A stretch of DNA of 36,779 nt from a virus: positions 1 to 36,779 of IMG/VR virus record IMGVR_UViG_3300043251_000087; one strand, 5' to 3'. The notes beneath the pieces were generated by a model. It searched no databases. It had not been told where the DNA came from and saw only the letters and a program-made list of their open reading frames with translations. This document shows positions 1,498 to 26,205 of this stretch, one piece after another. The position numbers and the translations under genes were made by a program. Position 1 is the stretch's first letter, and each line of letters begins with the position of its first letter.

Positions 1498-1510
1498 GGT
1501 GTGGTTCCCG

Positions 1511-1532: not shown

Positions 1533-1547
1533 ATCTGAAAAGATTTG

Positions 1548-2743: not shown

Positions 2744-2985
2744 TGCATACTCCTTGTTGCGTCGTTGCCGCGCGTGGGTGTTCGCCGGCCGGCGCCCTGC
2801 GCGCCGGTCGAAGGGCTGGGTTCGAGCGAAAAGGTGAAAGGAAATCGACGTAGCGATCAGCTGGGCTGGCGGCGCAGCGCGGCCATGGCCCATGACGTGG
2901 CGAAGAAATATTCGGTCAAAAATATCGCAGCGCGCGAAACGCTTCGACGCGACACGATAAGCGCACAGGCCCGCTGCCGCCTAAA

Positions 2986-4172: not shown

Positions 4173-4338
4173 TTGCTTGATCTCGGTGTGGAAGGCTTTC
4201 ACGGCGCATGCGTGTTGGCTTGTCCGGTGCGGTGTGCGCTCCGGTCAGAGGGCAGTTCTGGATTCGGTTGAAAGCTCGAAGAAAAGAGCGGTGGGCGCGT
4301 CAGCTACGCCTTCGGCTTGCTGGGCCGCGACGTGCCGT

Positions 4339-6183: not shown

Positions 6184-6216
6184 CCCTAAATCCTCGCATT
6201 GGTTGTTGCCGGTCAC

Positions 6217-6534: not shown

Positions 6535-6582
6535 GATACAAACCGTCGATGGGCAATCGGATTTAACTTTGACTCTCAGTCG

Positions 6583-7911
6583 CTATTGTTTCCGAAGCCG
6601 CGGTATGTCTTGGGTTTTCAAGATGACTTGTCCTGGCTCTTCTACAGGCCAGTGAAGATATTTTTTTCTTGTCAGTTGTTCGATGGTCGTTCGGTTTTTG
6701 CGAAATGCCTCTACACGGCCCTCGTTCGTCACGTTGTTGGCTCCAAAGTGGTCCGCTAGGCCCTCACGACTCACGGCGCAACGCACCTCATCGCCGAACG
6801 ACTCGCCAGCAAATGCGACTATATCTCTCTGAAAGTCGTACCGTGGGGGCGGATTATTAAAAGTCAAATCGATTCCGGGAACGATATCCCGACTTTTGTC
6901 TACGGCTTTGAGTACAATGTCGCGTGGACTTATGGGCAACTGACTTAACCCTTCAAGAATAAGTCGACCCCACGTCTTTCCGCGCGCAGACGCTTCCTGC
7001 CAAGCTGACTTCAGGTCATAGGGGTTCTTTTCGGCAAGGATCACAAATAGTGATGCTGCTTGATCGATATCCTTTTGCCGTTTGGCAACCCCTTCGGGTC
7101 GAAGACGAGACACTATGAGCTTGTGGATGGCGTACCGGGCTGGTGATGGCACGAGCACGTAAATGCCAACAGCATGGAGTATCGCGGCAGGCTCGGGATC
7201 GCTGATCAAAAAGTCAAGGAACCTCAACGGTTCAGCCTCGGTTTGGAAGGCAGGTAGCGCCTTTGGTATGTCAGTATCGCGCCCTTGATTGGGCGTAAGA
7301 AAATCAACGCGTATTCCTCCCTTGCCGACGTAGCTCGTAACATCGCCCTTGTGAAGGTGGGGAATAGGTCGAAATGTTTTATCGACCTGCTTCAGGACAT
7401 CGAGGACCGGAGGTATGCGGTCTCCTACCGCCACGGACACGTTGCTAAATTGCGCGATATCCACGTCGCTTGTTTGCAAGATTGACCGGGGTAAACGCGT
7501 TCCGAGCATCGCGGAATAAGTCTGATAAGCGACGGTACCGACCAGAACACCGCGAAGACGGAATACCCCTGCGTTCGCCAAGGCATTAACTACCTCGCCG
7601 ATTTCGGGCGCAGGAGGCTGAAGCCCGAAAGAACGGACCAGCGTCGAAACCAGAGAGCGCCGTTCACGCTCGTCGCTTCGTATTTGCTTGTGGTGCGCAA
7701 TCTGGTCGAGCAGCTCGGGTGTCTCCGGCCCAACATACTTTTGTTCACGGCCTCCAGTCGTTGAGCGCTGGAAGTACCAATATCGCTGTCCCTTGATCGT
7801 CTTGACAACGAAAGCGCCGTCTTGCGGAAAATCGGTCTGAAACGCTGTCGCCCTGCACCGTTCAAGGAGTTCGGCGTAGGTTGTCTGCAGTAAAAGGGGT
7901 GGCGGTGCCAT
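6583..7911 (-). CDS. GSU2403-type nucleotidyltransferase-fold protein, copy 1
   Basis: The protein has 442 residues from ATG 7911, with GGAG just upstream; an in-frame TTG seven codons earlier lies inside the operator-like palindrome and is less likely. The nucleotidyltransferase core shows RGVLVGTVAYQTYSAMLG (about 121-137) and TSDVDIAQF, whose Asp149 and Asp151 would bind the catalytic metal. This is the pattern of the GSU2403/NTP_transf_8 family. The C-terminal half is helical and charged. Members of the wider nucleotidyltransferase superfamily act as toxins or abortive-infection effectors; a role in phage exclusion here is inference. It is AT-richer than the portal sequence around it, carries its own control region, and is identical to the copy at 14284. 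Confidence 0.72.
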   Translation of the reverse strand: MAPPPLLLQTTYAELLERCRATAFQTDFPQDGAFVVKTIKGQRYWYFQRSTTGGREQKYVGPETPELLDQIAHHKQIRSDERERRSLVSTLVRSFGLQPPAPEIGEVVNALANAGVFRLRGVLVGTVAYQTYSAMLGTRLPRSILQTSDVDIAQFSNVSVAVGDRIPPVLDVLKQVDKTFRPIPHLHKGDVTSYVGKGGIRVDFLTPNQGRDTDIPKALPAFQTEAEPLRFLDFLISDPEPAAILHAVGIYVLVPSPARYAIHKLIVSRLRPEGVAKRQKDIDQAASLFVILAEKNPYDLKSAWQEASARGKTWGRLILEGLSQLPISPRDIVLKAVDKSRDIVPGIDLTFNNPPPRYDFQRDIVAFAGESFGDEVRCAVSREGLADHFGANNVTNEGRVEAFRKNRTTIEQLTRKKYLHWPVEEPGQVILKTQDIPRLRKQ

Positions 7912-7922
7912 AGGAGCTCCAG

Positions 7923-8003
7923 TTATACTCAAAAAGCAAATTGAGTATAATATAGGGGGCCCACTAGGGCAAGAATTATACGCAGGTTGCGAAACGCGTA
8001 TAA
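7923..8003 (-). promoter_or_regulatory. Paired palindromes upstream of nucleotidyltransferase, copy 1
   Basis: Two inverted repeats lie just upstream of the gene. The nearer has arms TTATACTCAA and TTGAGTATAA (7923-7932 and 7941-7950). The farther has arms TTATACGC and GCGTATAA (7976-7983 and 7996-8003). The four half-sites share TTATAC. The AT-rich TATAAT-like bases also make this the likely promoter, so a repressor (possibly the gene product itself) would block transcription. Confidence 0.6.
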
Positions 8004-8013
8004 TAAAATTGCC

Positions 8014-8284
8014 ACTTATTTAACGGCGCCTGCGGAAGGCCCCTTGTGCTGCGGCTCCTTGGTCTGCACCACCTCGGCGGCCCTCTCGCCGGCACGAACT
8101 TGGTGTGGCGGCGCCCGGCGAGGTCGCCGACGCCCACACCCTTCCCTCCCCGCAAGCGGGAGAGGGTCAGGGAGGGGGTTAGTCCTCCGGACTGGCGAAT
8201 CTGGCCCGGGGTCCAGCTCTGCGGCACGCCGAGCAAGGCGTCGGGGATCAAACCTTCGGTGCAGCAATCGTGCCGCCAAAGCTG
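8014..8284 (-). pseudogene. Degenerate portal gene fragment, copy 1
   Basis: The coding strand resembles the portal middle (SRQLWRHDCCTEGLIPDALLGVPQSWTPGQI) but is clearly diverged from the other copies and interrupted by a palindromic element at 8132-8178. It continues out of frame toward the KEPQHK region. It starts directly after the immunity stop at 8289 and ends at the nucleotidyltransferase control region. It is an older relic than the other portal fragments. Confidence 0.65.
8132..8178. repeat. GC-rich palindromic element in degenerate portal fragment
   Basis: The core CCCTCCCCGCAAGCGGGAGAGGG, with ACCCTT and TCAGGG flanks, is a slightly diverged member of the element family. It sits near the same portal codon as the elements at 6363 and 14064. 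Confidence 0.7.
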
Positions 8285-8288
8285 GCGG

Positions 8289-8741
8289 CTACGAACCATC
8301 CAGGCGACGCGCTAATTCCTCCGCCTGCGGCAAATCGCGCTCAATGTCATGCACAACTTGTAATGACTCGTCCGCGGTCAGGAGTTTTCCCTCTTGCTCA
8401 TCAAAAACGACGCCGCCTGTCGCCCGCGCGTACGCCGTCGCCGCCATCCAAACAGCTATCAGCTCGTCAAAACCCGCTATCCAGGGGAAGGTAACAACAT
8501 ACTTCCAACTGTGACCGAAATTAATGTTCTTGTAGGTACTCATCAGATCCGCAGGATCCTCAATCCAACACTGAAAACTCGTTGGTCTGTCATGGAGGTG
8601 GGCGGTCAGAGTCCCACCGTCTTCATCAAACAGGACATCGTGCGCCAATCGCAAAGGCAAGCCTTCAGCGTCTAACGACCGCTGCCAGCTAGAAATTGAA
8701 TCAAGTCGCGAGTCGGAGAGAACGTTGATTTCGACTGACAT
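8289..8741 (-). CDS. Putative immunity protein to PD-(D/E)xK portal toxin, copy 1
   Basis: The 150-residue acidic protein starts MSVEINVLSDSRLDS. It has DAEGLPLRL, a Trp-rich middle (HSWKYVVTFPW) and the signature WMAATAYARATGGVVFDEQEGKL. It is paralogous to the proteins at 26206 and 26763, which also sit next to a PD-(D/E)xK toxin-like gene. The same family thus follows the same tail type in two places, which is good evidence that it neutralises this tail. It begins 47 bases after the toxin stop. It is identical to the copy at 15990. Confidence 0.72.
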   Translation of the reverse strand: MSVEINVLSDSRLDSISSWQRSLDAEGLPLRLAHDVLFDEDGGTLTAHLHDRPTSFQCWIEDPADLMSTYKNINFGHSWKYVVTFPWIAGFDELIAVWMAATAYARATGGVVFDEQEGKLLTADESLQVVHDIERDLPQAEELARRLDGS

Positions 8742-8788
8742 CTTATTCCCTCATCCGCTTCTAGTACGCCCTGGCGTCATAGTTTTGA

Positions 8789-10198
8789 CTAGTCCGGGTC
8801 GCCCTGCTGTGACTTTATGACTGGCCCGCGCTCGATGTGCAGATCAATGACCGGGACACGGGAGACCGCTTTTGTCGCGGCACGAAGTTGGTTCGCTCTA
8901 CCTGGCCTCAGGCTAGCGTCTAGGGTCTTAACATCGTAGATCGCGATTACATCACCACTATCATTGCGCAAAACAGCATCTGGCTTGACAGCCTTTCTAC
9001 GGCCACCGTAGTCGGAAGGCAAACTGAATGTGTGCTCAACATCGGAAGGACTAATGCCGCGTATCCGCTCAGCGATTACCGCGGCAGCGAACCGCTTGTG
9101 AATCAAAATTCCATAGAAACTTGGAGATAAGTGCGTCGGAGCAGTCTCGTCGACAACCCTTGCAAGAATTTCTGACAATCTTTTGGTTGTTTCATCGATT
9201 TGCTGAATTCCTGTCCATGCATTTGGCCCATATACAATGTCCCTCGGCGGGCCGGCATATTGCTCACCCTTGGGAACATTTGACGTGTCTGGTCGTCCCT
9301 CGGTTTCCAAAGCGGCATAGCGGGTCTCGGACCTCGAACTTTCGGCGGCAACAGGTGGGAAATTGTATGGAGTCTGACTACCCTCCCCGTCCTTCGGCCG
9401 AAACTTGCCGCCACGGCCTCCTGGGGTCCCGGTCGGCCAGCCGGGATGCTCAGGATCGTCCGAGCTCGCTTTCAGAAGCGCGAGTTTTGCGGATTGCGTC
9501 TCTGCACCCGCGCTATGCCCATTCGCGCCCGTGCGTCCGGTGTTGGCTCCCTGCCCGCCCGCATTCGCCTCGATCGGCACAAAGCCGGTGGCGGTGAGCA
9601 CCATCGGGCGGTCGGCGGCGGCGTTGTCGAAGGGGTCGAGGCCGAGGGCGTCGCGCATCTCGTTGAGCGTGAGCGCACCGACTTTCAGCCGGCCTTCGAG
9701 CACCGTCTCGGGATCGCCTTCGTCCTCGTCGAGCCAATGCAGCTCGAGATCCGGCGAGGCGAATTCCTCCGCCACGATCTCGTCGATCAAATCCTTGACC
9801 CACTCCTTGGTCGGCTCGAGCCCCTCTTCCTCGGCCTGCGCCGACTGGTTGTCGGCGGTGGCGCGGTTCATCGCCTTGGTGGCCCATTGCGGCGGCACCG
9901 AAAAGGCAAAGCAGATGATGCGGGCGAGCCACTCGTCGAAATCGTCCTTGTGCTGCGGCTCCTTGGTCTGCACGACTTTGGCCGCGGTCTCGCCGGGCAC
10001 GAATTTTGCCCGCCGGCGCTTGGCCAGGTCGCCGGCGAATTCGGTGTCCCAATAATCCTGGAACTGCTTGATCTGGTCCGGCGTCCAGCCCTGCGGCACG
10101 CCGATCAGCGCGTCGGGGATCGAGCCTTCGGTGAAATAATCGAGCTGCCAGAGCTGGCGGCGCAGCGCGATGTTGACGGTCATCAACACCTGCTGCAC
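8789..10198 (-). CDS. Orphan portal-toxin cassette, PD-(D/E)xK tail, copy of main CT
   Basis: This 469-codon frame is the 3' two-thirds of the full-length portal-toxin gene at 16490. Portal sequence begins at 10228 (after GRAHRVYG) with no portal N-terminus; the first ATG is 10198. It keeps the linker PEHPGWPTGTPGGRGGKFRP and the nuclease-like tail with VKPDAVLRNDSGDVIAIYDVK. No ribosome binding site stands before 10198, and upstream is the end of an unrelated immunity gene. I infer a silent or weakly expressed cassette. It could recombine with the full portal gene through more than 1 kb of identity. Confidence 0.7.
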   Translation of the reverse strand: MQQVLMTVNIALRRQLWQLDYFTEGSIPDALIGVPQGWTPDQIKQFQDYWDTEFAGDLAKRRRAKFVPGETAAKVVQTKEPQHKDDFDEWLARIICFAFSVPPQWATKAMNRATADNQSAQAEEEGLEPTKEWVKDLIDEIVAEEFASPDLELHWLDEDEGDPETVLEGRLKVGALTLNEMRDALGLDPFDNAAADRPMVLTATGFVPIEANAGGQGANTGRTGANGHSAGAETQSAKLALLKASSDDPEHPGWPTGTPGGRGGKFRPKDGEGSQTPYNFPPVAAESSRSETRYAALETEGRPDTSNVPKGEQYAGPPRDIVYGPNAWTGIQQIDETTKRLSEILARVVDETAPTHLSPSFYGILIHKRFAAAVIAERIRGISPSDVEHTFSLPSDYGGRRKAVKPDAVLRNDSGDVIAIYDVKTLDASLRPGRANQLRAATKAVSRVPVIDLHIERGPVIKSQQGDPD

Positions 10199-10265
10199 CG
10201 GCGAGAAGCCGTAGACCCGGTGGGCGCGACCTAATCGCCGATTCGCCTGATCGTGCGTTCAATAA

Positions 10266-10907
10266 TCAGTCACGGCACTCGCCGAATTCGGTTACGCGCC
10301 CGTCATATTTTTGGATTGAAGCGCACAAGCGGCTTGCCTCCGTAACGTCGCCTTCCTCTTTGCAGCTTCCTTTGATGCGCCAGTATTTGCCTTTGTCCTC
10401 TGCCAGCATCGGCGCTTGAACTTTAATATCATGGTGATGAGCATCAAAAAGCGCTTCGATGATGCTTGTGGCTAGCCTAGCATCAAAAACAACACCTCCG
10501 CGCGCCAATCCGGTTAAAAACATAATCCCCGACTCGGAAGCCGGGTCGGATCCTTCGTTTCTGAGCCGTGGTCCTGAAGCTGGAGCCGAATTCAAACTTG
10601 ATTTCTGTTCATTATGGCCGTCGCGTATTGCTTTGACGACCAAAGGATGCGGTGGGCATCGAACATACTCGCCAAAATCGATCACTCGCGCATCACGCTT
10701 CTCAATGGAGAGGAAGAATTCCGCAGGACCATTGATCGCTCCGTCGCGGTTTCGATTGCCTTCGACACGCCAATAATCTCCCCTATCTATCAACGACAGC
10801 GGCGATTGCTCCCGAAGGTCGCCATAATGCGCCTCGCAAAATAACTCCGCGAGCTTGATTGCTAGGTTTTTATCGGACAAGAGGTCATCTGAGAACGTTT
10901 CCATCAT
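10266..10907 (-). CDS. Tandem NTF2-fold-like immunity protein
   Basis: The 213-residue protein contains two similar units of about 65 residues. The first has LAELFCEAHYGDLREQSPL, YWRVEGNR and RVIDFGEY; the second has IIEALFDAHHHDIKVQAPM, YWRIKGSC and RVTEFGEC. This is the layout of NTF2-fold immunity proteins of polymorphic toxin loci, here duplicated in one chain. The start is set at ATG 10907 (an ATG pair, with AAGG about ten bases upstream). It follows the PD-(D/E)xK-like cassette whose stop is at 10957, so that tail is the likely partner. Confidence 0.72.
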   Translation of the reverse strand: MMETFSDDLLSDKNLAIKLAELFCEAHYGDLREQSPLSLIDRGDYWRVEGNRNRDGAINGPAEFFLSIEKRDARVIDFGEYVRCPPHPLVVKAIRDGHNEQKSSLNSAPASGPRLRNEGSDPASESGIMFLTGLARGGVVFDARLATSIIEALFDAHHHDIKVQAPMLAEDKGKYWRIKGSCKEEGDVTEASRLCASIQKYDGRVTEFGECRD

Positions 10908-10956
10908 GATCACAAGCCTTGCTGTGAGATGCGATGAAATCAAGCAATTGCTTCTG

Positions 10957-12330
10957 TCAATGCGTCGGTTTCGATCCACGCGGCAGCAGCTTAAGCGGAG
11001 GCAACTCGGTCACACTGTACTCCTTTCCCGGCCCAGGCGCTCGGATAAAGAAGACCCTCATAGGTGGAAAGGGGGCACCGGGCTCCCAGCCCAGTTCCGT
11101 AACGCGAAGATCATTGCTATAGACGTGCCACCCCAGCTGCATCATTTGAAGATAGATAGTCTGATTTGGTGTTAGAGTTATAGTTTCGTCGCCGGTCTTT
11201 ATTTCAAGAACTGAGGGCCCCATGCCAGGCATAATCGCTATGATATCGGGATATCCAAGAATATCTTCCGGCAAACCGATCATATGCACGGCCGGCTCCT
11301 TGATGGCCGGTATACCGATGCTCTTAAGATAAGCCATCCAGTGATTGACATTCGCTTCGTGAAATCCCGCACTGAAGTCTACGACAGGAATCGGTGCCGC
11401 GGCGCTTGAAAAATCAGTCGCAGCATCCTTCGGGCGAAACTTTCCGCCCTTCCCTCCGGCGGTTCTTGCGGGCCATCCGGGGTGTTCAGGATCGTCCGGG
11501 CTCGCTTTTCCAAGCGCGTGATTCGCGAACCGCTTTCCCACATTTGCACTTTGCCCGTTCGCGTTGGCATTTCCGTCACTCGCCCCCTCCCCGCCCGCAT
11601 TGGCCTCGATCGGCACAAAGCCCGTCGCCGTGAGCACCATCGGGCGATCGGCTGCGGCGTTGTCGAAGGGGTCGAGGCCGAGGGCGTCGCGCATTTCGTT
11701 GAGGGTAAGCGCGCCGACTTTCAACCGGCCTTCCAGCACCGTCTCGGGATCGCCCTCGTCCTCGTCGAGCCAATGCAGCTCGAGATCGGGCGAGGCAAAT
11801 TCCTCCGCCACGATCTCGTCGATCAGATCCTTGACCCACTCCTTGGTCGGCTCGAGCCCCTCCTCTTCGGCCTGCGCCGATTGATTCTCCGCCGTGGCGC
11901 GGTTCATCGCCTTGGTGGCCCATTGCGGCGGCACCGAAAAGGCAAAGCAGATGATGCGGGCGAGCCACTCGTCGAAATCGTCCTTGTGCTGTGGCTCTTT
12001 GGTCTGGACGACCTTGGCCGCCGTCTCGCCGGGCACGAATTTTGCGCGCCGCCGCTTGGCCAGGTCGCCTGCGAACTCGGTGTCCCAATAATCCTGGAAC
12101 TGCTTGATCTGGTCCGGCGTCCAGCCCTGCGGCACGCCGATCAGCGCGTCGGGGATCGAGCCTTCGGTGAAATAGTCGAGCTGCCAGAGCTGGCGGCGCA
12201 GCGCGATATTGACCGTCATCAGCACCTGCTGCACCGGCGAAAAACCGTAGACCCGGTGAGCGCGCACGTTGCGCGGCCGGTAGACGATATCGCGCGCCGA
12301 GTAATTGACCGCGGGCAGGCCTTTGAGCAC
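10957..12330 (-). CDS. Orphan portal-toxin cassette with PD-(D/E)xK-like tail 2
   Basis: Portal homology begins at about 12436 (LDGATIKRVIDDWG), immediately after an in-frame TAG, so the portal N-terminal half is missing. The 457-codon frame is counted from a GTG at 12330 that lacks a convincing ribosome binding site. This copy keeps the uninterrupted FAAADGTTIYPPAYQQ, where the full gene carries a palindromic insert. After the linker PEHPGWPARTAGGKGGKFRP the tail contains GYPDIIAIMPGMGPSVLEIKTG, a good PD-(D/E)xK nuclease motif of the VRR-NUC or Holliday-resolvase type. A tandem NTF2-like immunity gene follows. It is probably a silent donor cassette. Confidence 0.7.
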   Translation of the reverse strand: MLKGLPAVNYSARDIVYRPRNVRAHRVYGFSPVQQVLMTVNIALRRQLWQLDYFTEGSIPDALIGVPQGWTPDQIKQFQDYWDTEFAGDLAKRRRAKFVPGETAAKVVQTKEPQHKDDFDEWLARIICFAFSVPPQWATKAMNRATAENQSAQAEEEGLEPTKEWVKDLIDEIVAEEFASPDLELHWLDEDEGDPETVLEGRLKVGALTLNEMRDALGLDPFDNAAADRPMVLTATGFVPIEANAGGEGASDGNANANGQSANVGKRFANHALGKASPDDPEHPGWPARTAGGKGGKFRPKDAATDFSSAAAPIPVVDFSAGFHEANVNHWMAYLKSIGIPAIKEPAVHMIGLPEDILGYPDIIAIMPGMGPSVLEIKTGDETITLTPNQTIYLQMMQLGWHVYSNDLRVTELGWEPGAPFPPMRVFFIRAPGPGKEYSVTELPPLKLLPRGSKPTH

Positions 12331-12475
12331 CTGCTGATAGGCCGGCGGATAGATCGTCGTGCCGTCGGCCGCGGCGAACGGCTGCGGCGTGCGGCCCCAA
12401 TCGTCGATGACGCGCTTGATGGTCGCGCCGTCGAGCTATCCAATTGAGTTGGACCGCCGGCGGATTCCCTAGGTC

Positions 12476-12925
12476 TTAATCCAACACGGTACCTCGCCGA
12501 GCACCATCATATGCGAGATCCTGAAAATCCTTCGGAAAATATTGCCGCTGAAGGTCGTCCACAATTTCATTCGCGCGAATGGAAATGCCCATATTGGGCC
12601 AATCTTTCAGGTGGTTCCACAGTCCCACCATGAGATCAATTCGCCAACCGGGAAACTCCTTCACTAGCTCCTGAAGCGCACTGACAACCGGGCGCTCCAA
12701 CAGTTTGAGGTTATGAACGAAGACAACAACTTGCGGATATTCGCTATAATCGCCGTGGACCGAATAATCACCATGGCGCTGTCCTGGTAAAAAATCAGGC
12801 CTGCCAAAGCGCTCGAGCAGTGCATCGACGCGAGGGTAGAGCCGCTCAAAAACATCATATTGCTCGGCTTGGCGACGATCGTACTCGTCCCGACTCATCG
12901 TATTGATGTCATCTCTAGTTATCAT
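12476..12925 (-). CDS. Unrecognised putative immunity protein for HHxVP tail
   Basis: The 149-residue protein is taken from ATG 12925 (MITRDDINTM), with GGGAG about a dozen bases upstream; an in-frame GTG at 12970 would overlap the toxin gene. It is acidic and soluble, with YPQVVVFVHNLKLLERPVV and FPGWRIDLMVGLWNHLKDW. I do not recognise its family. Its position directly after the HHxVP cassette makes it the likely immunity partner, which is inference. Confidence 0.62.
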   Translation of the reverse strand: MITRDDINTMSRDEYDRRQAEQYDVFERLYPRVDALLERFGRPDFLPGQRHGDYSVHGDYSEYPQVVVFVHNLKLLERPVVSALQELVKEFPGWRIDLMVGLWNHLKDWPNMGISIRANEIVDDLQRQYFPKDFQDLAYDGARRGTVLD

Positions 12926-12956
12926 TTTCTGCTGCTCCCGATCATCGCTAGACGGC

Positions 12957-14024
12957 TTAGTCTGGATCACCGCCCCTGCCTCCTCTTATTCCGCGCGGGC
13001 CGTAAACACGAATATATCTCAATACTTCCCGTTGGATCTTTAGTACCAGTCCATGAATTCTGGGCTCGCTCGACGCCTTAACTTCCTCGATGAGTTCGCG
13101 CGCTTGATCCGGTGTCATCTGCTCAGAGGTTATCTTATTCCTATTCAAGTAGGCTTCAAATAGCTCATCTACCGCCTCGTTGTATTCAATATGCTCTGCG
13201 TTGTTCCTATTAACGCTTGGATCAGCAAGTGTGCCCGACTTCGTCTTATCAAAGACCTCCCATGTTTCCGGCTTGATGTCCTTTTTATTGTAAACCACCT
13301 TCGGAACCCAATGATGCCCCTCACCATATCTCTGATAGCGCACCAGGGCATCATCGGGCCCATCCGATTTATCATTCTCATCATCGGCTGCTGCAATTCT
13401 AGTCCACTGGCCAGCGCCAGGATTGCGCTTGGGCACACGTGGTTCACCAGGGTCGTAACCATATTTTTGAATGAGAGGTGTCCCGTTATTTCGCTTGCGG
13501 AGGCTCGATATATTGGTTTGTTGAGCAACAACTAGTTGTTCACCCCCGCTTTGCTCGCCAGCGTCTTTCGCCCCTTCCCCGCCCGCATTCGCCTCGATCG
13601 GCACATAACCCGTCGCCGTGAGCACCATCGGGCGGTCGGCGGCGGCGTTGTCGAAGGGGTCGAGGCCGAGCGCGTCGCGCATCTCGTTGAGCGTGAGCGC
13701 GCCGACTTTCAGCCGGCTTTCGAGCACCGTCTCGGGATCGCCTTCGTCCTCGTCGAGCCAATGCAGCTCGAGATCGGGCGACGAAAATTCCTCCGCCACG
13801 ATCTCGTCGATCAAATCCTTGACCCATTCCTTGGTCGGCTCGAGCCCCTCCTCTTCGGCCTGCGCCGATTGATTCTCCGCGGTGGCGCGGTTCATCGTCT
13901 TGGTGGCCCATTGCGGCGGCACCGAAAACGCAAAGCAGATGATGCGGGCGAGCCATTCGTCGAAATCGTCCTTGTGCTGCGGCTCCTTGGTCTGGACGAC
14001 CTTTGCCGCGGTCTCGCCGGGCAC
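12957..14024 (-). CDS. Orphan portal-toxin cassette with HHxVP nuclease-like tail
   Basis: The frame carries the portal C-terminal part (from PGETAAKVVQ to YVPIEANAGG) and a distinct tail. Instead of the PEHPGWP linker it has EPRVPKRNPGAGQWT, a variant of the linker used by the MKPPLP head family. The tail contains GEGHHWVPKVVY and NNAEHIEYNEAVDELFEAYL, suggesting an HNH/endonuclease VII-like fold of the GHH type. The portal frame upstream is broken by the palindrome at 14064, and the only start is a GTG at 14024. The cassette is therefore unlikely to make a portal fusion. Confidence 0.65.
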   Translation of the reverse strand: MPGETAAKVVQTKEPQHKDDFDEWLARIICFAFSVPPQWATKTMNRATAENQSAQAEEEGLEPTKEWVKDLIDEIVAEEFSSPDLELHWLDEDEGDPETVLESRLKVGALTLNEMRDALGLDPFDNAAADRPMVLTATGYVPIEANAGGEGAKDAGEQSGGEQLVVAQQTNISSLRKRNNGTPLIQKYGYDPGEPRVPKRNPGAGQWTRIAAADDENDKSDGPDDALVRYQRYGEGHHWVPKVVYNKKDIKPETWEVFDKTKSGTLADPSVNRNNAEHIEYNEAVDELFEAYLNRNKITSEQMTPDQARELIEEVKASSEPRIHGLVLKIQREVLRYIRVYGPRGIRGGRGGDPD

Positions 14025-14235
14025 GAATTTTGCCCGCCGGCGCTTGGCCAGGTCGCCGGCGAAGCCCCCACCCTTCCCTCCCCCGCAAGCGGGGGAGGGT
14101 TAGGGAGGGGGAATCCTGGAACTGCTTGATCTGGTCCGGTGTCCAGCCCTGCGGCACGCCGATCAGCGCGTCGGGGATCGAGCCTTCGGTGAAATAATCG
14201 AGCTGCCAGAGCTGGCGGCGCAGCGCGATGTTGAC
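14025..14235 (-). pseudogene. Portal fragment upstream of HHxVP cassette, frameshifted
   Basis: Portal codons from NIALRRQLWQ to KQFQD are readable, then the palindromic element shifts the frame, and a TAA in the original portal frame lies inside the element. The frame resumes downstream as the cassette at 12957-14024. The portal-toxin fusion is therefore split in two and presumably silent. Confidence 0.72.
14064..14111. repeat. GC-rich palindromic element in portal fragment, right copy
   Basis: Identical to 6363-6410. It replaces 14 bases of portal sequence and disrupts the frame of the HHxVP cassette. Confidence 0.8.
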
Positions 14236-14283
14236 GATACAAACCGTCGATGGGCAATCGGATTTAACTTTGACTCTCAGTCG

Positions 14284-15612
14284 CTATTGTTTCCGAAGCC
14301 GCGGTATGTCTTGGGTTTTCAAGATGACTTGTCCTGGCTCTTCTACAGGCCAGTGAAGATATTTTTTTCTTGTCAGTTGTTCGATGGTCGTTCGGTTTTT
14401 GCGAAATGCCTCTACACGGCCCTCGTTCGTCACGTTGTTGGCTCCAAAGTGGTCCGCTAGGCCCTCACGACTCACGGCGCAACGCACCTCATCGCCGAAC
14501 GACTCGCCAGCAAATGCGACTATATCTCTCTGAAAGTCGTACCGTGGGGGCGGATTATTAAAAGTCAAATCGATTCCGGGAACGATATCCCGACTTTTGT
14601 CTACGGCTTTGAGTACAATGTCGCGTGGACTTATGGGCAACTGACTTAACCCTTCAAGAATAAGTCGACCCCACGTCTTTCCGCGCGCAGACGCTTCCTG
14701 CCAAGCTGACTTCAGGTCATAGGGGTTCTTTTCGGCAAGGATCACAAATAGTGATGCTGCTTGATCGATATCCTTTTGCCGTTTGGCAACCCCTTCGGGT
14801 CGAAGACGAGACACTATGAGCTTGTGGATGGCGTACCGGGCTGGTGATGGCACGAGCACGTAAATGCCAACAGCATGGAGTATCGCGGCAGGCTCGGGAT
14901 CGCTGATCAAAAAGTCAAGGAACCTCAACGGTTCAGCCTCGGTTTGGAAGGCAGGTAGCGCCTTTGGTATGTCAGTATCGCGCCCTTGATTGGGCGTAAG
15001 AAAATCAACGCGTATTCCTCCCTTGCCGACGTAGCTCGTAACATCGCCCTTGTGAAGGTGGGGAATAGGTCGAAATGTTTTATCGACCTGCTTCAGGACA
15101 TCGAGGACCGGAGGTATGCGGTCTCCTACCGCCACGGACACGTTGCTAAATTGCGCGATATCCACGTCGCTTGTTTGCAAGATTGACCGGGGTAAACGCG
15201 TTCCGAGCATCGCGGAATAAGTCTGATAAGCGACGGTACCGACCAGAACACCGCGAAGACGGAATACCCCTGCGTTCGCCAAGGCATTAACTACCTCGCC
15301 GATTTCGGGCGCAGGAGGCTGAAGCCCGAAAGAACGGACCAGCGTCGAAACCAGAGAGCGCCGTTCACGCTCGTCGCTTCGTATTTGCTTGTGGTGCGCA
15401 ATCTGGTCGAGCAGCTCGGGTGTCTCCGGCCCAACATACTTTTGTTCACGGCCTCCAGTCGTTGAGCGCTGGAAGTACCAATATCGCTGTCCCTTGATCG
15501 TCTTGACAACGAAAGCGCCGTCTTGCGGAAAATCGGTCTGAAACGCTGTCGCCCTGCACCGTTCAAGGAGTTCGGCGTAGGTTGTCTGCAGTAAAAGGGG
15601 TGGCGGTGCCAT
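14284..15612 (-). CDS. GSU2403-type nucleotidyltransferase-fold protein, copy 2
   Basis: This 442-residue protein is identical to the product of 6583-7911. Its start is ATG 15612, with GGAG six bases upstream. The GTVAYQTYS and SDVDIAQF motifs mark a nucleotidyltransferase core with an Asp pair (about 149 and 151) for metal binding. It lies between a degenerate portal fragment and a frameshifted portal fragment, so it was carried in as cargo of a cassette. No partner gene lies in the same operon. Possible roles are a toxin or a phage-defence effector; neither is shown by the sequence. Confidence 0.72.
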   Translation of the reverse strand: MAPPPLLLQTTYAELLERCRATAFQTDFPQDGAFVVKTIKGQRYWYFQRSTTGGREQKYVGPETPELLDQIAHHKQIRSDERERRSLVSTLVRSFGLQPPAPEIGEVVNALANAGVFRLRGVLVGTVAYQTYSAMLGTRLPRSILQTSDVDIAQFSNVSVAVGDRIPPVLDVLKQVDKTFRPIPHLHKGDVTSYVGKGGIRVDFLTPNQGRDTDIPKALPAFQTEAEPLRFLDFLISDPEPAAILHAVGIYVLVPSPARYAIHKLIVSRLRPEGVAKRQKDIDQAASLFVILAEKNPYDLKSAWQEASARGKTWGRLILEGLSQLPISPRDIVLKAVDKSRDIVPGIDLTFNNPPPRYDFQRDIVAFAGESFGDEVRCAVSREGLADHFGANNVTNEGRVEAFRKNRTTIEQLTRKKYLHWPVEEPGQVILKTQDIPRLRKQ

Positions 15613-15623
15613 AGGAGCTCCAG

Positions 15624-15704
15624 TTATACTCAAAAAGCAAATTGAGTATAATATAGGGGGCCCACTAGGGCAAGAATTATACGCAGGTTGCGAAACGCGT
15701 ATAA
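15624..15704 (-). promoter_or_regulatory. Paired palindromes upstream of nucleotidyltransferase, copy 2
   Basis: The same two inverted repeats as at 7923-8003: arms TTATACTCAA/TTGAGTATAA at 15624-15633 and 15642-15651, and TTATACGC/GCGTATAA at 15677-15684 and 15697-15704. The common TTATAC half-site in four places suggests cooperative repressor binding over an AT-rich promoter. Confidence 0.6.
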
Positions 15705-15714
15705 TAAAATTGCC

Positions 15715-15985
15715 ACTTATTTAACGGCGCCTGCGGAAGGCCCCTTGTGCTGCGGCTCCTTGGTCTGCACCACCTCGGCGGCCCTCTCGCCGGCACGAAC
15801 TTGGTGTGGCGGCGCCCGGCGAGGTCGCCGACGCCCACACCCTTCCCTCCCCGCAAGCGGGAGAGGGTCAGGGAGGGGGTTAGTCCTCCGGACTGGCGAA
15901 TCTGGCCCGGGGTCCAGCTCTGCGGCACGCCGAGCAAGGCGTCGGGGATCAAACCTTCGGTGCAGCAATCGTGCCGCCAAAGCTG
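15715..15985 (-). pseudogene. Degenerate portal gene fragment, copy 2
   Basis: Duplicate of 8014-8284. Diverged portal codons (CCTEGLIPDALLGVPQSW) are interrupted by the element at 15833-15879. It lies between the immunity stop at 15990 and the nucleotidyltransferase control region. Confidence 0.65.
15833..15879. repeat. GC-rich palindromic element, right copy of 8132
   Basis: Same sequence as 8132-8178 inside the second copy of the degenerate portal fragment. Confidence 0.7.
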
Positions 15986-15989
15986 GCGG

Positions 15990-16442
15990 CTACGAACCAT
16001 CCAGGCGACGCGCTAATTCCTCCGCCTGCGGCAAATCGCGCTCAATGTCATGCACAACTTGTAATGACTCGTCCGCGGTCAGGAGTTTTCCCTCTTGCTC
16101 ATCAAAAACGACGCCGCCTGTCGCCCGCGCGTACGCCGTCGCCGCCATCCAAACAGCTATCAGCTCGTCAAAACCCGCTATCCAGGGGAAGGTAACAACA
16201 TACTTCCAACTGTGACCGAAATTAATGTTCTTGTAGGTACTCATCAGATCCGCAGGATCCTCAATCCAACACTGAAAACTCGTTGGTCTGTCATGGAGGT
16301 GGGCGGTCAGAGTCCCACCGTCTTCATCAAACAGGACATCGTGCGCCAATCGCAAAGGCAAGCCTTCAGCGTCTAACGACCGCTGCCAGCTAGAAATTGA
16401 ATCAAGTCGCGAGTCGGAGAGAACGTTGATTTCGACTGACAT
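15990..16442 (-). CDS. Putative immunity protein to PD-(D/E)xK portal toxin, copy 2
   Basis: This 150-residue acidic protein is identical to that at 8289-8741, and here follows the full-length portal-toxin gene by 47 bases. The family signature is AWMAA.AYARATGGV..D, shared with 26206 and 26763. As the only immunity gene directly behind the intact portal fusion, it is the one that would protect the lysogen if the tail is active. The role is inferred from pairing in two independent places. Confidence 0.74.
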   Translation of the reverse strand: MSVEINVLSDSRLDSISSWQRSLDAEGLPLRLAHDVLFDEDGGTLTAHLHDRPTSFQCWIEDPADLMSTYKNINFGHSWKYVVTFPWIAGFDELIAVWMAATAYARATGGVVFDEQEGKLLTADESLQVVHDIERDLPQAEELARRLDGS

Positions 16443-16489
16443 CTTATTCCCTCATCCGCTTCTAGTACGCCCTGGCGTCATAGTTTTGA

Positions 16490-18736
16490 CTAGTCCGGGT
16501 CGCCCTGCTGTGACTTTATGACTGGCCCGCGCTCGATGTGCAGATCAATGACCGGGACACGGGAGACCGCTTTTGTCGCGGCACGAAGTTGGTTCGCTCT
16601 ACCTGGCCTCAGGCTAGCGTCTAGGGTCTTAACATCGTAGATCGCGATTACATCACCACTATCATTGCGCAAAACAGCATCTGGCTTGACAGCCTTTCTA
16701 CGGCCACCGTAGTCGGAAGGCAAACTGAATGTGTGCTCAACATCGGAAGGACTAATGCCGCGTATCCGCTCAGCGATTACCGCGGCAGCGAACCGCTTGT
16801 GAATCAAAATTCCATAGAAACTTGGAGATAAGTGCGTCGGAGCAGTCTCGTCGACAACCCTTGCAAGAATTTCTGACAATCTTTTGGTTGTTTCATCGAT
16901 TTGCTGAATTCCTGTCCATGCATTTGGCCCATATACAATGTCCCTCGGCGGGCCGGCATATTGCTCACCCTTGGGAACATTTGACGTGTCTGGTCGTCCC
17001 TCGGTTTCCAAAGCGGCATAGCGGGTCTCGGACCTCGAACTTTCGGCGGCAACAGGTGGGAAATTGTATGGAGTCTGACTACCCTCCCCGTCCTTCGGCC
17101 GAAACTTGCCGCCACGGCCTCCTGGGGTCCCGGTCGGCCAGCCGGGATGCTCAGGATCGTCCGAGCTCGCTTTCAGAAGCGCGAGTTTTGCGGATTGCGT
17201 CTCTGCACCCGCGCTATGCCCATTCGCGCCCGTGCGTCCGGTGTTGGCTCCCTGCCCGCCCGCATTCGCCTCGATCGGCACAAAGCCGGTGGCGGTGAGC
17301 ACCATCGGGCGGTCGGCGGCGGCGTTGTCGAAGGGGTCGAGGCCGAGGGCGTCGCGCATCTCGTTGAGCGTGAGCGCACCGACTTTCAGCCGGCCTTCGA
17401 GCACCGTCTCGGGATCGCCTTCGTCCTCGTCGAGCCAATGCAGCTCGAGATCCGGCGAGGCGAATTCCTCCGCCACGATCTCGTCGATCAAATCCTTGAC
17501 CCACTCCTTGGTCGGCTCGAGCCCCTCTTCCTCGGCCTGCGCCGACTGGTTGTCGGCGGTGGCGCGGTTCATCGCCTTGGTGGCCCATTGCGGCGGCACC
17601 GAAAAGGCAAAGCAGATGATGCGGGCGAGCCACTCGTCGAAATCGTCCTTGTGCTGCGGCTCCTTGGTCTGCACGACTTTGGCCGCGGTCTCGCCGGGCA
17701 CGAATTTTGCCCGCCGGCGCTTGGCCAGGTCGCCGGCGAATTCGGTGTCCCAATAATCCTGGAACTGCTTGATCTGGTCCGGCGTCCAGCCCTGCGGCAC
17801 GCCGATCAGCGCGTCGGGGATCGAGCCTTCGGTGAAATAATCGAGCTGCCAGAGCTGACGGCGCAGCGCGATGTTGACGGTCATCAGCACCTGCTGCACC
17901 GGCGAGAAGCCGTAGACCCGGTGGGCGCGCACGTTGCGCGGCCGGTAGACGATGTCGCGCGCCGAATAATTGACCGCCGGCAGGCCTTTGAGCACCTGCT
18001 GATAGGCCGGCGGATAGACCATTCCCCCACCCTTCCCTCCCCCGCTTGCGGGGGAGGATAGGAGGGGGTCCCAATACGGCTGCGGCGTGCGGCCCCAATC
18101 GTCGATCACGCGCTTGATGGTCGCGCCGTCGAGCTGCTGCAGCGCGCAGAGCTGGCCGGAGCGCGTGCGCTGGCAATACAGCGTCGCCGCGTCGATGACG
18201 AACATGTCCTCGAGCAGCGCCCGCAGCCAGGTCTTCCAGCGCGTGATGCCGTCGGGCTTTTGCAAGAAAGCCTCGATGCCGGCGATGCGCGCGGTCACGT
18301 CGGGATCGATCGCGGCGCTGCGACGCTTGGATTTTGCATCGCGCGGCCGGATGCGCCAGCGCTGGCGCTCCATCTGGTCCTTGCGTGTCTCGATGACCAG
18401 CCGCAACAGATCGTAGGCGTCGGCGAAACCGCGCAGCTCGGCAAAACCGATGCTCTCGTAGGCACGCGGCCGGGTGACGAGGTTGTAGCCGGGCGGGAAG
18501 TCGAACCGCCTGCCGGCGACGTCGGGCGGCGCGATCGGCCGCATCGGGTCGAGCGGGCCGAACCAGTCGGCGCCCGAGCCGCGCGCAATGCCATTGCTTG
18601 ACGTGGCTTGGCTCGACGTGCCTTGGCTCGACGTGCCTTGGCTCGACGTGCTTTGGCTTTGGCCGTAGGACACCTGGATCTGATACGGCGACAGCGGCCA
18701 AGTCGGCTGGCCGGCGCCGCGCACCTGTTCGCTCAT
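16490..18736 (-). CDS. Phage portal protein with C-terminal PD-(D/E)xK toxin-like domain
   Basis: The 748-residue protein is taken from ATG 18736 (MSEQVRGAG), with AGGA eight bases upstream; a longer frame to 18943 runs through a palindromic element and is not needed. Residues 27-46 are four 5-residue repeats. From about 70 to 510 is the portal fold (RLVIETRKDQMERQRWRI, DIVYRPRNVRAHRVYGFSPV, WLARIICFAFSVPPQW), forming the dodecameric DNA channel at one capsid vertex. Linker PEHPGWPTGTPGGRGGKFRP lies at about 528-547. The ~200-residue tail has VKPDAVLRND and AIYDVK (about 681-701), a PD-(D/E)xK nuclease motif. Portal proteins do not need such a tail. A palindrome at 18023-18068 adds residues in frame. 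An immunity gene follows. Confidence 0.85.
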   Translation of the reverse strand: MSEQVRGAGQPTWPLSPYQIQVSYGQSQSTSSQGTSSQGTSSQATSSNGIARGSGADWFGPLDPMRPIAPPDVAGRRFDFPPGYNLVTRPRAYESIGFAELRGFADAYDLLRLVIETRKDQMERQRWRIRPRDAKSKRRSAAIDPDVTARIAGIEAFLQKPDGITRWKTWLRALLEDMFVIDAATLYCQRTRSGQLCALQQLDGATIKRVIDDWGRTPQPYWDPLLSSPASGGGKGGGMVYPPAYQQVLKGLPAVNYSARDIVYRPRNVRAHRVYGFSPVQQVLMTVNIALRRQLWQLDYFTEGSIPDALIGVPQGWTPDQIKQFQDYWDTEFAGDLAKRRRAKFVPGETAAKVVQTKEPQHKDDFDEWLARIICFAFSVPPQWATKAMNRATADNQSAQAEEEGLEPTKEWVKDLIDEIVAEEFASPDLELHWLDEDEGDPETVLEGRLKVGALTLNEMRDALGLDPFDNAAADRPMVLTATGFVPIEANAGGQGANTGRTGANGHSAGAETQSAKLALLKASSDDPEHPGWPTGTPGGRGGKFRPKDGEGSQTPYNFPPVAAESSRSETRYAALETEGRPDTSNVPKGEQYAGPPRDIVYGPNAWTGIQQIDETTKRLSEILARVVDETAPTHLSPSFYGILIHKRFAAAVIAERIRGISPSDVEHTFSLPSDYGGRRKAVKPDAVLRNDSGDVIAIYDVKTLDASLRPGRANQLRAATKAVSRVPVIDLHIERGPVIKSQQGDPD
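18023..18068. repeat. Palindromic element inserted in frame in the portal gene
   Basis: The core is CCCTCCCCCGCTTGCGGGGGAGG. Where the orphan copy near 12360 encodes PFAAADGTTIYPP, this gene encodes PYWDPLLSSPASGGGKGGGMVYPP. The element thus replaced a short stretch and kept the frame open, adding a Gly/Ser-rich loop to the portal protein. Confidence 0.8.
18600..18659. repeat. 15-bp tandem repeat, four copies, portal N-terminus
   Basis: Four head-to-tail copies of a unit close to GACGTGCCTTGGCTC encode repeated SQGTS-type pentapeptides (residues about 27-46 of the portal protein). Changes in copy number would keep the frame and only lengthen or shorten a disordered N-terminal arm. Confidence 0.8.
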
Positions 18737-19128: not shown

Positions 19129-19860
19129 TCAATGATTGCACTGCCGAGAATTGTCGTAACGATCAAGCGGGCAAATGGTGACAAAATAAAAATGCCGGAA
19201 CATGCGGGAATCGCGAGAAACCGGTGTGCCTGATACTTCCGACGACATGTGATAACCCTCGAATGGTCCAGCACAAATCCCGGAACGGAGCCCGGTCGCA
19301 TCGCTCTCATCATAGGCGACCCCAATACCGCAAGGCGCAGTGTCAGCCCAGCCCCACACCTTGAATCGCGGCTTGTCGGCGGGCAGCCTGGATATCTCGG
19401 CCGTGTAACGAGGATACATGACGGAAAGATAGACGTAGTCCCCGCCGCGCCTGAAGGCATCGAGATTGGCTGCCGCAACAATCGCGGTCAGCAGCAAAAT
19501 GAGCGTGGATAACAGCCGACGCCAAGTGTGTTTGAGTCCGTGCTCGACACAGTTCATCGCGGCAATAATGGCGACGGTTACGCCCGCCCCGCCCCAGAAC
19601 AAAAACAACAGGGGAATGAAGAATGCGTATAGAAAATATGGACCGGCAATCCCAAAGGCAGTGGCCAGCGGACAGGCCTTCGCAATGTCGGCGCCGTCGC
19701 AAGCAAAAGTGGCAAGGCCGAAAGGGACAAAGACAATATACAGGAGGGATTTGAGGAATGGACCCGGATAAGCAATCAAGCAGGTCAGCGCACAGCCAGC
19801 AGCGGTAGCGACCGGCCAATAGAGAATTCGGTCGTCAGTCGCGCCTTGCACGGCAGTCAT
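19129..19860 (-). CDS. Membrane protein, probable immunity partner of 19857 toxin
   Basis: The 243-residue protein has about four hydrophobic segments in its first half (from DRILYWPVATAAGCALTCLI to LSTLILLLTAIVAAANL), then a soluble C-terminal part with YVYLSVMYPRYTAEI, DKPRFKVWGW, GIAYDES and FRHFYFVTIC. The same layout occurs at 22585, 23311 and 24361 and as a truncated relic at 4339. Its ATG overlaps the toxin stop (ATGA at 19857-19860), so it is translationally coupled. A membrane immunity protein suggests that the paired toxin tail acts at the inner membrane. That is inference from pairing. Confidence 0.72.
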   Translation of the reverse strand: MTAVQGATDDRILYWPVATAAGCALTCLIAYPGPFLKSLLYIVFVPFGLATFACDGADIAKACPLATAFGIAGPYFLYAFFIPLLFLFWGGAGVTVAIIAAMNCVEHGLKHTWRRLLSTLILLLTAIVAAANLDAFRRGGDYVYLSVMYPRYTAEISRLPADKPRFKVWGWADTAPCGIGVAYDESDATGLRSGICAGPFEGYHMSSEVSGTPVSRDSRMFRHFYFVTICPLDRYDNSRQCNH

Positions 19861-20930
19861 CGCCCCGGCCGAATACGTCCCGATTGGTACAATCTATAGC
19901 CCAGTTTCGTATCTTCGACATCCTGCTTCGCCGAATGAGTGTAGACGTCGTCCAGCCGGTCATTACGGCCGAATCGGGAAAAATTTAGGGCATAATCGTC
20001 TATTGTCGAGAGGACATCGTTCTGATCCAAGCCTGCTGCCGCGCCGTAAACGCCGATCATGATGTTCAGATAGTGGCGGTAATCGATAACACGACTGAAG
20101 TCGAAACGTTCGGCATCCAGAGACCCTCCAGGGGAAACAGGAAGCAGCAACGAATAAAGGATCCCCCGAGCCACAGACGGTGTAACGTCCCAAGGCCCGA
20201 CCTGATCTTGCGGGCTCATCAACGCGCTCAACGCTGTCCCCGAGAATGGGTTTGCCAAGCCCGCCTGAACATATCTTTCCGGTGGCATGCTAGCAGGCCG
20301 AAAAATAGGTTGACCCTGATTGTCGTGGATCGGGACGCCATCACTGTCCACAAATTCCACTGGGGCCCTTGGATGATCCTCAGGAAGTGTATACGACCAA
20401 ATATTCTGACGCCGCGGATCATGTACAGTCAGAAGAGTGTAGAGCACACCAGGAAGGTTACCCTGAATTGACGTGTCGTACGCGGCCGTGTTGGCCGCGT
20501 TGCGGCTTGTCTCGTCCGTACGCGTATTAGTCTCGGCCTGAGCGTATTGCACGCGCGCACCAGAGACCTCGCTCGTGTTGTCGTCTGAAAGATGCGATGC
20601 CTCGCCGCTCCCGGCGACAGGCTCACTCCCGCTCGTCCACTGCCCACCGTCGGGGTTTCCGGCCGGCACGCGCGGCTGGTCGGGGCTGTATTTTTTCAGC
20701 TCCGATTGCAGCTCCGCCATCGCCAGTGCCGGCAATTCTTCGCCGAGCTTGCGAACGCCGCGCGCGAGCACATCCAAATCGCGGCGGATCGCGGCGATCT
20801 CCGCGCGCCGCTGCCGCAGCAATTCGTCCTCGTCCGGCCCGGCGAGCGTGCGGATCGCCTTGGCGATCTCGAGCTGGGTGTGCAAGTTCCGCGGCACGGC
20901 GGTCAAAATGCGAGGTCCGTTGGGGTTCAT
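19857..20930 (-). CDS. Head-2 polymorphic toxin-like protein, membrane-paired tail
   Basis: The 357-residue protein begins MNPNGPRILTAVPRNLH, has the helical head (to about 80) and the linker ending GNPDGGQWT at 99. The tail includes PRAPVEFVDSDGVPIHDNQGQPIF, MPPERYVQAGLANPFSGT, LDAERFDFSRVIDYRHYLNIM, and the end motif DDVYTHSAKQDVED...YRLYQSGRIR. The gene at 24934 has the same tail, and remnants lie at 4631 and 23884. It overlaps the terminase stop by ATGA, so it is embedded in the packaging operon and is the best candidate for a member expressed with virion genes. No catalytic motif is recognised. Confidence 0.72.
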   Translation of the reverse strand: MNPNGPRILTAVPRNLHTQLEIAKAIRTLAGPDEDELLRQRRAEIAAIRRDLDVLARGVRKLGEELPALAMAELQSELKKYSPDQPRVPAGNPDGGQWTSGSEPVAGSGEASHLSDDNTSEVSGARVQYAQAETNTRTDETSRNAANTAAYDTSIQGNLPGVLYTLLTVHDPRRQNIWSYTLPEDHPRAPVEFVDSDGVPIHDNQGQPIFRPASMPPERYVQAGLANPFSGTALSALMSPQDQVGPWDVTPSVARGILYSLLLPVSPGGSLDAERFDFSRVIDYRHYLNIMIGVYGAAAGLDQNDVLSTIDDYALNFSRFGRNDRLDDVYTHSAKQDVEDTKLGYRLYQSGRIRPGR

Positions 20931-26040: not shown

Positions 26041-26072
26041 CGGATTGGCCTTTTCCGCGCCGAGCGCCGCGA

Positions 26073-26203: not shown

Positions 26204-26205
26204 AA

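What the first reader, a model, noticed from the sequence alone, without database searches (positions are those of the whole stretch)
8789..18736. Phage portal gene as the head of a polymorphic toxin, with an array of orphan tail/immunity cassettes
The full portal gene (16490-18736) ends in a linker and a PD-(D/E)xK nuclease-like tail with an immunity gene. Downstream, partial portal copies without N-terminus or clear start carry other tails (HHxVP type, second PD-(D/E)xK type, and a copy of the first), each followed by a different small gene. Each orphan keeps several hundred bases of portal sequence, enough for recombination with the full gene to swap tails. This is the logic of CdiA-CT and Rhs orphan cassettes, and phages are known to carry MuF polymorphic toxins. 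Here, however, the carrier is the portal, which sits at the capsid vertex through which DNA leaves. I infer a phage-borne exclusion or delivery system with a silent repertoire.
Basis: partly seen in the sequence, partly recalled or inferred. Interest (0 to 1): 0.93.

Follow-up and report, generated by a model that had tools for sequence, protein, structure and literature searches.

The report
Phage portal carrying swappable toxin tails
In soil bacteria, the gene for the doorway protein of a virus-derived particle ends in an exchangeable toxin, with spare toxin-plus-antidote cassettes stored behind it, and near-identical copies of the locus show these toxins being swapped by recombination.

Summary
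Window 16490-18736 is one intact portal ORF (PF04860, phrog_2662) ending in a linker and a PD-(D/E)xK toxin-like domain. It is followed by an immunity-like gene and three truncated portal copies with HHxVP, second PD-(D/E)xK and repeat-of-first tails. In about 80 related contigs the body is conserved while tails fall into at least eight families, including RNase A/CdiA-CT, AHH and barnase. Each tail family travels with its own small gene (26/26, 25 of 26, 8/8; barnase with barstar). Orphan arrays follow 26 of 31 close relatives and 0 of 15 distant ones. Three near-identical pairs show the switch: a new tail is loaded and the old tail-immunity pair is displaced behind it as an orphan. For this window both crossovers map to 176-bp and 134-bp identity tracts. 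More distant relatives carry a MuF domain where the toxin sits. The cluster lies next to aspS in seven contigs, without integrase, so it looks like a resident, phage-derived particle rather than a typical prophage. Particle delivery is inferred, not shown. Closest known: MuF toxins and CdiA/Rhs orphan arrays. I found no description of a portal as carrier in the papers held.

The parts
16490..18736 (-). Full-length portal gene, 748 aa; body about residues 1-493
   Evidence: PF04860 7.9e-15, phrog_2662 1.2e-71
17096..17161 (-). Linker motif DDPEHPGWPTGTPGGRGGKFRPK between portal body and toxin
   Evidence: Motif of this type in 94 of 102 close-clade tails and 44 of 54 standalone carriers, 1 of 17 distant tails
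16493..16954 (-). Tail A: PD-(D/E)xK nuclease-like toxin domain
   Evidence: Invariant E73, D92, D107 and near-invariant K109 in A1; AF2 pLDDT 88, pTM 0.84; Foldseek to Cas4-like ACE1 and DrdV, prob 0.94-0.99
15990..16442 (-). immA, putative immunity gene of tail A, with Shine-Dalgarno
   Evidence: 25 of 26 members of this family follow a cluster-0 tail; GAGGG upstream
14284..15633 (-). Nucleotidyltransferase (NTP_transf_8) + DUF1488 gene inside the repeated unit
   Evidence: PF12281 2.9e-63, PF07369 6.7e-14
12957..14063 (-). Orphan B: truncated portal body (residues 333-497) + HHxVP tail; this tail is on the full portal in L018
12476..12970 (-). immB, putative immunity gene of the HHxVP tail
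   Evidence: 26 of 26 members of this family follow cluster-1 tails
10957..12437 (-). Orphan C: portal body (residues 202-505) + second PD-(D/E)xK-like tail (YPDIIAI...VLEIKTG)
   Evidence: motif read directly, no Pfam match
10266..10979 (-). immC, NTF2-fold immunity protein
   Evidence: PF15631 Imm-NTF2-2 9.9e-9
8789..10228 (-). Orphan A: portal body (residues 270-505) + copy of tail A
8289..8741 (-). Second copy of immA
   Evidence: identical to 15990-16442
6195..6579 (-). Portal-body fragment without its own tail, used as right homology arm in the duplication
6216..10228 (.). Downstream copy of the 4,013-bp repeated unit
   Evidence: 99.93% to 13917-17929
13917..17929 (.). Upstream copy of the repeated unit, fused to the active portal
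17682..17857 (.). Crossover window 1 (full portal x orphan A), 176 bp of identity
13930..14063 (.). Crossover window 2 (fragment x portal body), 134 bp of identity
5362..6189 (-). Standalone carrier with barnase-like C-terminus
   Evidence: PF00545 8.6e-7
4901..5356 (-). Barstar-like immunity gene
   Evidence: PF01337 1.4e-5
27240..28391 (-). Standalone carrier whose C-terminus is homologous to tail A
   Evidence: 74% identity over 104 aa to a portal tail; 39% to tail A
26206..27206 (-). Two immA homologues (26206-26751, 26763-27206) behind that standalone carrier
   Evidence: 42% identity to immA
3195..4202 (-). Standalone carrier, C-terminus 64% identical to the L012 portal tail
19857..20930 (-). 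Standalone carrier, weak Ntox44 match
   Evidence: PF15607 E 0.027, below cut-off
24934..26205 (-). Standalone carrier, weak Ntox44 match
   Evidence: PF15607 E 0.067, below cut-off
20927..22462 (-). Terminase large subunit
   Evidence: PF17289, PF04466, phrog_979
1727..2893 (-). Head maturation protease, S78/XkdF-like
   Evidence: PF14550 7.9e-5; phrog_80, phrog_9427
1..1572 (-). Probable major capsid protein (runs off contig)
   Evidence: Position after the protease; homologues 84-98% in close relatives; no domain search made
30779..31573 (+). S24 (LexA/CI-type) repressor
   Evidence: PF00717 8.9e-13, HTH
32205..34097 (-). Host aspS, flank of the element
   Evidence: Same neighbour in WIN, L010, L049, L052, L124, L130, L132; identified by sequence

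Best explanation
This is a polymorphic toxin locus whose carrier is the portal protein of a resident, phage-derived particle in Xanthobacteraceae-type soil bacteria. The conserved portal body is followed by a linker and one exchangeable toxin domain, and the next gene encodes the matching immunity protein. Behind it lies an array of toxin-immunity cassettes, each preceded by a truncated portal body. The bodies serve as homology arms: recombination loads a stored or incoming tail onto the full portal, and in the pairs seen here the displaced tail and its immunity gene stay behind as an orphan, so immunity to the old toxin is kept. Shown from sequence: architecture, tail diversity, toxin-immunity co-segregation, tail exchange, missing start signals on the window's orphan tails, and recurrent location. 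Inferred: the portal C-terminus faces the capsid interior (as other portals' crown or barrel does, and where relatives carry MuF), so toxin domains are packaged and enter recipient cells with the DNA, possibly after the S78-type protease cuts at the shared linker; cells without the cognate immunity gene are poisoned.
For: Portal identity and intact ORF. Tail A fold. Known toxin families as tails: RNAse_A_bac in 7 tails (8e-15), AHH in 4, barnase in 2. Toxin-immunity co-segregation: 26/26, 25 of 26, 8/8, 5/5, 3/3, 3/3, 2/2, with barnase-barstar. Orphans in 26 of 31 close relatives and 0 of 15 distant ones. Tail switches: window vs L018 with both crossovers mapped; L030 vs L028/L031; L020 and L066 vs L027. 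L028 and L030 have identical N-terminal bodies and different tails. Orphan starts lack SD, immA and immB have it. The same toxin domains occur on standalone carriers (19 of 44), one at 99% identity. MuF occupies the portal C-terminus in more distant relatives, including phage Polewnik. aspS neighbour in seven contigs, no integrase. Purifying selection on the body.
Against: No toxicity, immunity, particle or delivery data exist. Twelve portal subunits with 25-kDa tails might hinder packaging unless cleaved or tolerated. A portal normally stays in the virion, so ejection needs release of the tail. Tail B has no matching fold in the PDB. The window junctions are seen in no other viral contig and reads are not available. 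G002 carries the cluster about 41 kb away from aspS. Some close relatives (L038, L042) have no toxin tail, so it is dispensable.
Confidence: 0.66

Rival explanations
1. Ordinary prophage with a superinfection-exclusion or abortive device: the portal-bound nuclease acts in the producing cell or on incoming phage DNA, not in recipients.
For: S24 repressor next to GcrA suggests lysogeny-type control; nuclease tails could attack phage DNA; an endolysin gene in a relative.
Against: RNase A-like, barnase and diverse other tails with cognate immunity genes fit polymorphic toxins better than DNA-targeted exclusion. No PADLOC match among ten window proteins. No integrase in related records of 35-46 kb.
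Confidence: 0.12
2. Toxin-immunity pairs act as addiction cassettes that stabilise the resident element; the fusion to the portal is only a convenient promoter and start codon.
For: immA and immB have their own Shine-Dalgarno sites; cassettes are kept intact in arrays; some genomes have lost the element (L125).
Against: A long conserved portal body under purifying selection and a conserved linker shared with a second carrier are not needed for addiction; the families are polymorphic-toxin families.
Confidence: 0.1
3. The toxin is released by lysis like a bacteriocin and the portal has no delivery role.
For: Endolysin in a relative.
Against: No receptor-binding or translocation domain was recognised on the tails; the portal is assembled into the capsid vertex; MuF sits in the same place in relatives.
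Confidence: 0.06
4. The window's tail switch is a chimeric assembly at identical portal tracts.
For: Both junctions lie in exact-identity tracts of 176 and 134 bp, as a chimera would; no other viral contig has them.
Against: The same 4-kb segment appears twice in one contig, which short-read assembly cannot normally produce. Two other switches show the same topology, one with identical new arrangements in two contigs from different datasets (L020, L066).
Confidence: 0.15

Closest known systems
MuF polymorphic toxins of temperate phages (Jamet 2017 PMC5576092; Zhang 2012 PMC3482391; Bxa, PMC11699363)
   Same: Head-morphogenesis protein fused to variable C-terminal toxins, small immunity gene behind, next to portal and terminase; capsid delivery proposed
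   Different: Carrier here is the portal itself; no MuF domain in the toxin clade, while more distant relatives have portal-MuF fusions. The MuF paper's text does not contain the word 'orphan'
CdiA-CT/CdiI orphan arrays (Poole 2011 PMC3150448)
   Same: Fragmentary carrier copies without start signals, each with toxin and immunity gene, downstream of the full carrier; varying lengths of carrier homology
   Different: No CdiA, VENN or two-partner secretion; carrier is a virion protein
Rhs orphan activation by duplication plus recombination (Koskiniemi 2014 PMC3967940)
   Same: That paper proposes duplication followed by recombination between main and orphan so that the old immunity gene is retained; the window/L018 pair has that product, with both breakpoints mapped
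   Different: Phage portal instead of Rhs; seen in natural sequences, not in an evolution experiment
Gene transfer agents of Alphaproteobacteria
   Same: No integrase found, recurrent chromosomal location, DUF2460 / hub / NlpC-CHAP tail-tip genes, head genes under selection
   Different: S24 repressor, standalone toxins and portal toxins; packaging of host DNA unknown; homology to known GTAs not tested

Membership tests
Polymorphic toxin system | Conserved N-terminal trafficking part with variable C-terminal toxin domains | tested here: met
   Body 74-100% identical, tails in at least eight families
Polymorphic toxin system | Cognate immunity gene immediately downstream | tested here: met
   Family-to-family co-segregation; barstar with barnase; Imm-NTF2-2. 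Protection itself not tested
Polymorphic toxin system | Toxin activity neutralised by the immunity protein | not testable with these tools
   needs expression assays
MuF toxin | MuF domain N-terminal to the toxin | tested here: not met
   No PF04233 in the window portal or in 61 tails of the toxin-carrying loci; present in distant relatives
CdiA / Rhs orphan array | CdiA or Rhs carrier protein | tested here: not met
   Carrier is PF04860 portal
CdiA / Rhs orphan array | Start-less carrier fragments with toxin and immunity gene; recombination with the main gene | tested here: met
   (works like it, not a member)
Gene transfer agent | No integrase, resident chromosomal locus | tested here: inconclusive
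   No PF00589 in six related records of 35-46 kb; aspS neighbour in 7 contigs, exception G002
Gene transfer agent | Packages random host DNA | not testable with these tools
   needs particle DNA sequencing
Temperate prophage | Integrase and attachment sites | tested here: not met
   No integrase found; attachment sites not searched

The most novel reading that the evidence does not exclude
A domesticated, GTA-like particle has been turned into a toxin-delivery machine: its portal and standalone cargo proteins share a linker that loads or releases toxins, so that only recipients with the matching immunity gene survive receipt of a particle, and lineages change specificity by recombining portal tails.
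Probability: 0.3. Interest if true: 0.93.

Novelty: new variant of a known kind. Interest (0 to 1): 0.83.

Why it matters
Phage-head polymorphic toxins have been described with MuF as carrier, and their delivery is unproven. Here the carrier is the portal, a subunit of fixed copy number at the DNA exit. It comes with an orphan array and natural before-and-after pairs that show how a tail is switched while the old immunity gene is kept, a weakness that Poole et al. raised for CdiA. The linker shared by two unrelated carriers makes packaging or cleavage of capsid-borne toxins directly testable.

Tried and rejected
Site-specific recombination: orphan 5' ends lie at many different portal positions with no common motif, so general homologous recombination is preferred. 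Relaxed selection on orphan bodies: pairwise dN/dS of the body is as low for orphans (median 0.05) as for full portals (0.07), which suggests recent displacement rather than long decay, although 5 of 32 orphan segments contain stops. PDB sequence search with the portal gave nothing useful. Fold search of tail B gave nothing. PADLOC gave no match. NCBIfam added only an RNase A-like domain model. My first aspS query was in the wrong frame and was corrected. Literature searches for portal-toxin fusions and for GTA plus polymorphic toxins found no such description in the held papers. Independent support for the window's two junctions was sought and not found.
Full report
1. The observation. The window is an IMG/VR record of 36,779 bp. 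On the minus strand, 16490-18736 is one open frame of 748 aa whose first ~490 residues are a portal protein (PF04860 7.9e-15, phrog_2662 1.2e-71). The remainder is a linker and a C-terminal domain. Three truncated portal copies follow, with tails B (HHxVP), C and A again. Each tail is followed by a small gene.

2. The tails. Tail A has invariant E73, D92, D107 and near-invariant K109 over 22 homologues. It gives a confident AlphaFold2 model (pLDDT 88, pTM 0.84) whose best PDB neighbours are PD-(D/E)xK nucleases (Cas4-like ACE1, DrdV; prob 0.94-0.99, E about 1e-3). Tail B models well but matches nothing in the PDB; four tails in the whole set match the AHH nuclease family. Tail C carries a YPDIIAI...VLEIKTG motif typical of PD-(D/E)xK enzymes (read directly; no Pfam match). 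Across 61 tails from related loci Pfam finds RNAse_A_bac (7), AHH (4) and barnase (2).

3. The small genes are immunity-like. I took the next ORF behind each tail in all loci and clustered toxins and small genes separately. The families map one to one: 26/26 for the HHxVP tail, 25 of 26 for the PD-(D/E)xK tail, 8/8 for RNase A, and 5/5, 3/3, 3/3 and 2/2 for smaller ones, barnase going with a barstar-like gene. One window gene is Imm-NTF2-2, another a barstar. In the window, immA and immB have Shine-Dalgarno sequences, whereas the orphan ORFs start at internal portal codons without one. So orphans are probably silent as toxins but may give immunity, as shown for CdiI orphans (PMC3150448).

4. 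Relatives. Scans gave 77 viral and 9 genome loci. Among 31 close relatives (body identity at least 72%, at least 3 kb downstream, duplicates removed) 26 have portal-body orphans behind the full gene; none of 15 distant relatives does. In two close relatives without toxin (L038, L042) the protease follows within about 120 bp. Distant relatives, among them L058 (65% identity) and Brevundimonas phage Polewnik, carry a MuF domain at the portal C-terminus. MuF binds the portal in SPP1 (PMC5576092) and is hypothesised to target toxins to the capsid (PMC11699363). The toxin therefore occupies the MuF position.

5. Tail exchange caught in the act. L018 is almost identical to the window (99.78% over 11.5 kb, 100% over 10.5 kb) but has tail B on the full portal and tail A only as orphan. 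The window equals L018 plus a 4-kb segment (orphan A, immA, nucleotidyltransferase, portal fragment) joined into the portal body. The only three differences between the two 4-kb copies are sites that match the recipient portal, which places the crossovers in a 176-bp and a 134-bp tract (window 17682-17857 and 13930-14063). Simplest path: unequal duplication between the fragment and the portal, then recombination between portal and orphan A; integration of an excised circle fits as well. Two further switches have the same topology: L030 vs L028/L031 and L020 (=L066) vs L027; L028 and L030 have identical N-terminal bodies with different tails. In all three the old tail and immunity gene remain as an orphan. 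Poole et al. noted that simple reloading would lose the old immunity gene (PMC3150448), and Koskiniemi et al. proposed duplication plus recombination as the way round it for Rhs (PMC3967940). Caveat: the window's junctions occur in no other viral contig and chimeric assembly would also join at identity tracts; against this, the window contig contains the 4-kb segment twice, and another switch is present in two datasets.

6. A second carrier. The cluster also holds standalone proteins with a shared helical N-terminus (helical by inspection only) and the same linker (KYSPDQPRVPAGNPDGGQWT or DDPEHPGWPAGTPGGRGGKFRPK). The linker is in 94 of 102 close portal tails, 44 of 54 standalone carriers and 1 of 17 distant tails. 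Nineteen of 44 standalone C-termini are homologous to portal tails, one at 99% identity. A linker common to two unrelated carriers is a good candidate for a processing or loading signal; this is inference.

7. The element. Gene order is aspS, p31731, S24 repressor, GcrA, p29519, putative TerS, TerL, portal, S78-type protease, probable MCP, adaptor, tape measure, DUF2460, hub, CHAP/NlpC, fibre. It lies next to aspS in seven contigs (WIN, L010, L049, L052, L124, L130, L132); L125 keeps aspS-S24-GcrA without the head genes; G002 has the cluster about 41 kb away on the same contig. Integrase is absent from six related records of 35-46 kb. TerL identity between loci (72-78%) is similar to that of neighbouring host genes (67-84%). 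The portal was found in 8 of 20 genomes of one genus, many of them fragmentary. This looks like a resident, vertically inherited particle, possibly GTA-like, but DNA packaging is unknown.

8. Verdict. The portal as carrier of an orphan-array polymorphic toxin is well supported by sequence (about 0.9). Delivery inside particles is the best inference (about 0.5). It works like CdiA/Rhs arrays and MuF toxins but is a member of neither, because the defining carrier domains are absent. I rate it a new variant of a known kind.

Noticed in passing
window 18022-18068; 14067-14113: A Bradyrhizobium-like palindromic repeat (CCCTCCCCCGC...GCGGGGGAGGG) is inserted in frame in the full portal (LLSSPASGGGKGGGMV) and out of frame in orphan fragments, similar to Rickettsia palindromic elements.
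   Followed up: partly
window 19129-19860, 22585-23283, 23311-23871, 24361-24921: A family of small, apparently membrane-embedded proteins (RILYWP...) follows the Ntox44-like standalone carriers; membrane immunity would suggest an envelope or periplasmic target.
   Followed up: no
window 6583-7932 and 14284-15633: NTP_transf_8 + DUF1488 protein, possibly a nucleotidyltransferase toxin, carried inside the cassette array and duplicated with it.
   Followed up: partly
L015:11231-13036: Portal-MuF fusion with an intein-like domain next to the MuF region, in a Planctomycetota MAG.
   Followed up: no
L017:11234-12064: A 46%-identical portal from another alphaproteobacterial MAG has a different tail with the same linker (HPRWPGGSPDGTGGEFAPKG) and no MuF, so the arrangement may reach beyond this clade.
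   Followed up: partly
L125:3402-4830: aspS-S24-GcrA is kept in a genome without the head genes, perhaps a remnant after loss of the particle genes.
   Followed up: no
L120:5408, L114:7902, L117:4918: A 430-aa gene of unknown family lies behind the fibre genes in three records and may mark the right border.
   Followed up: partly
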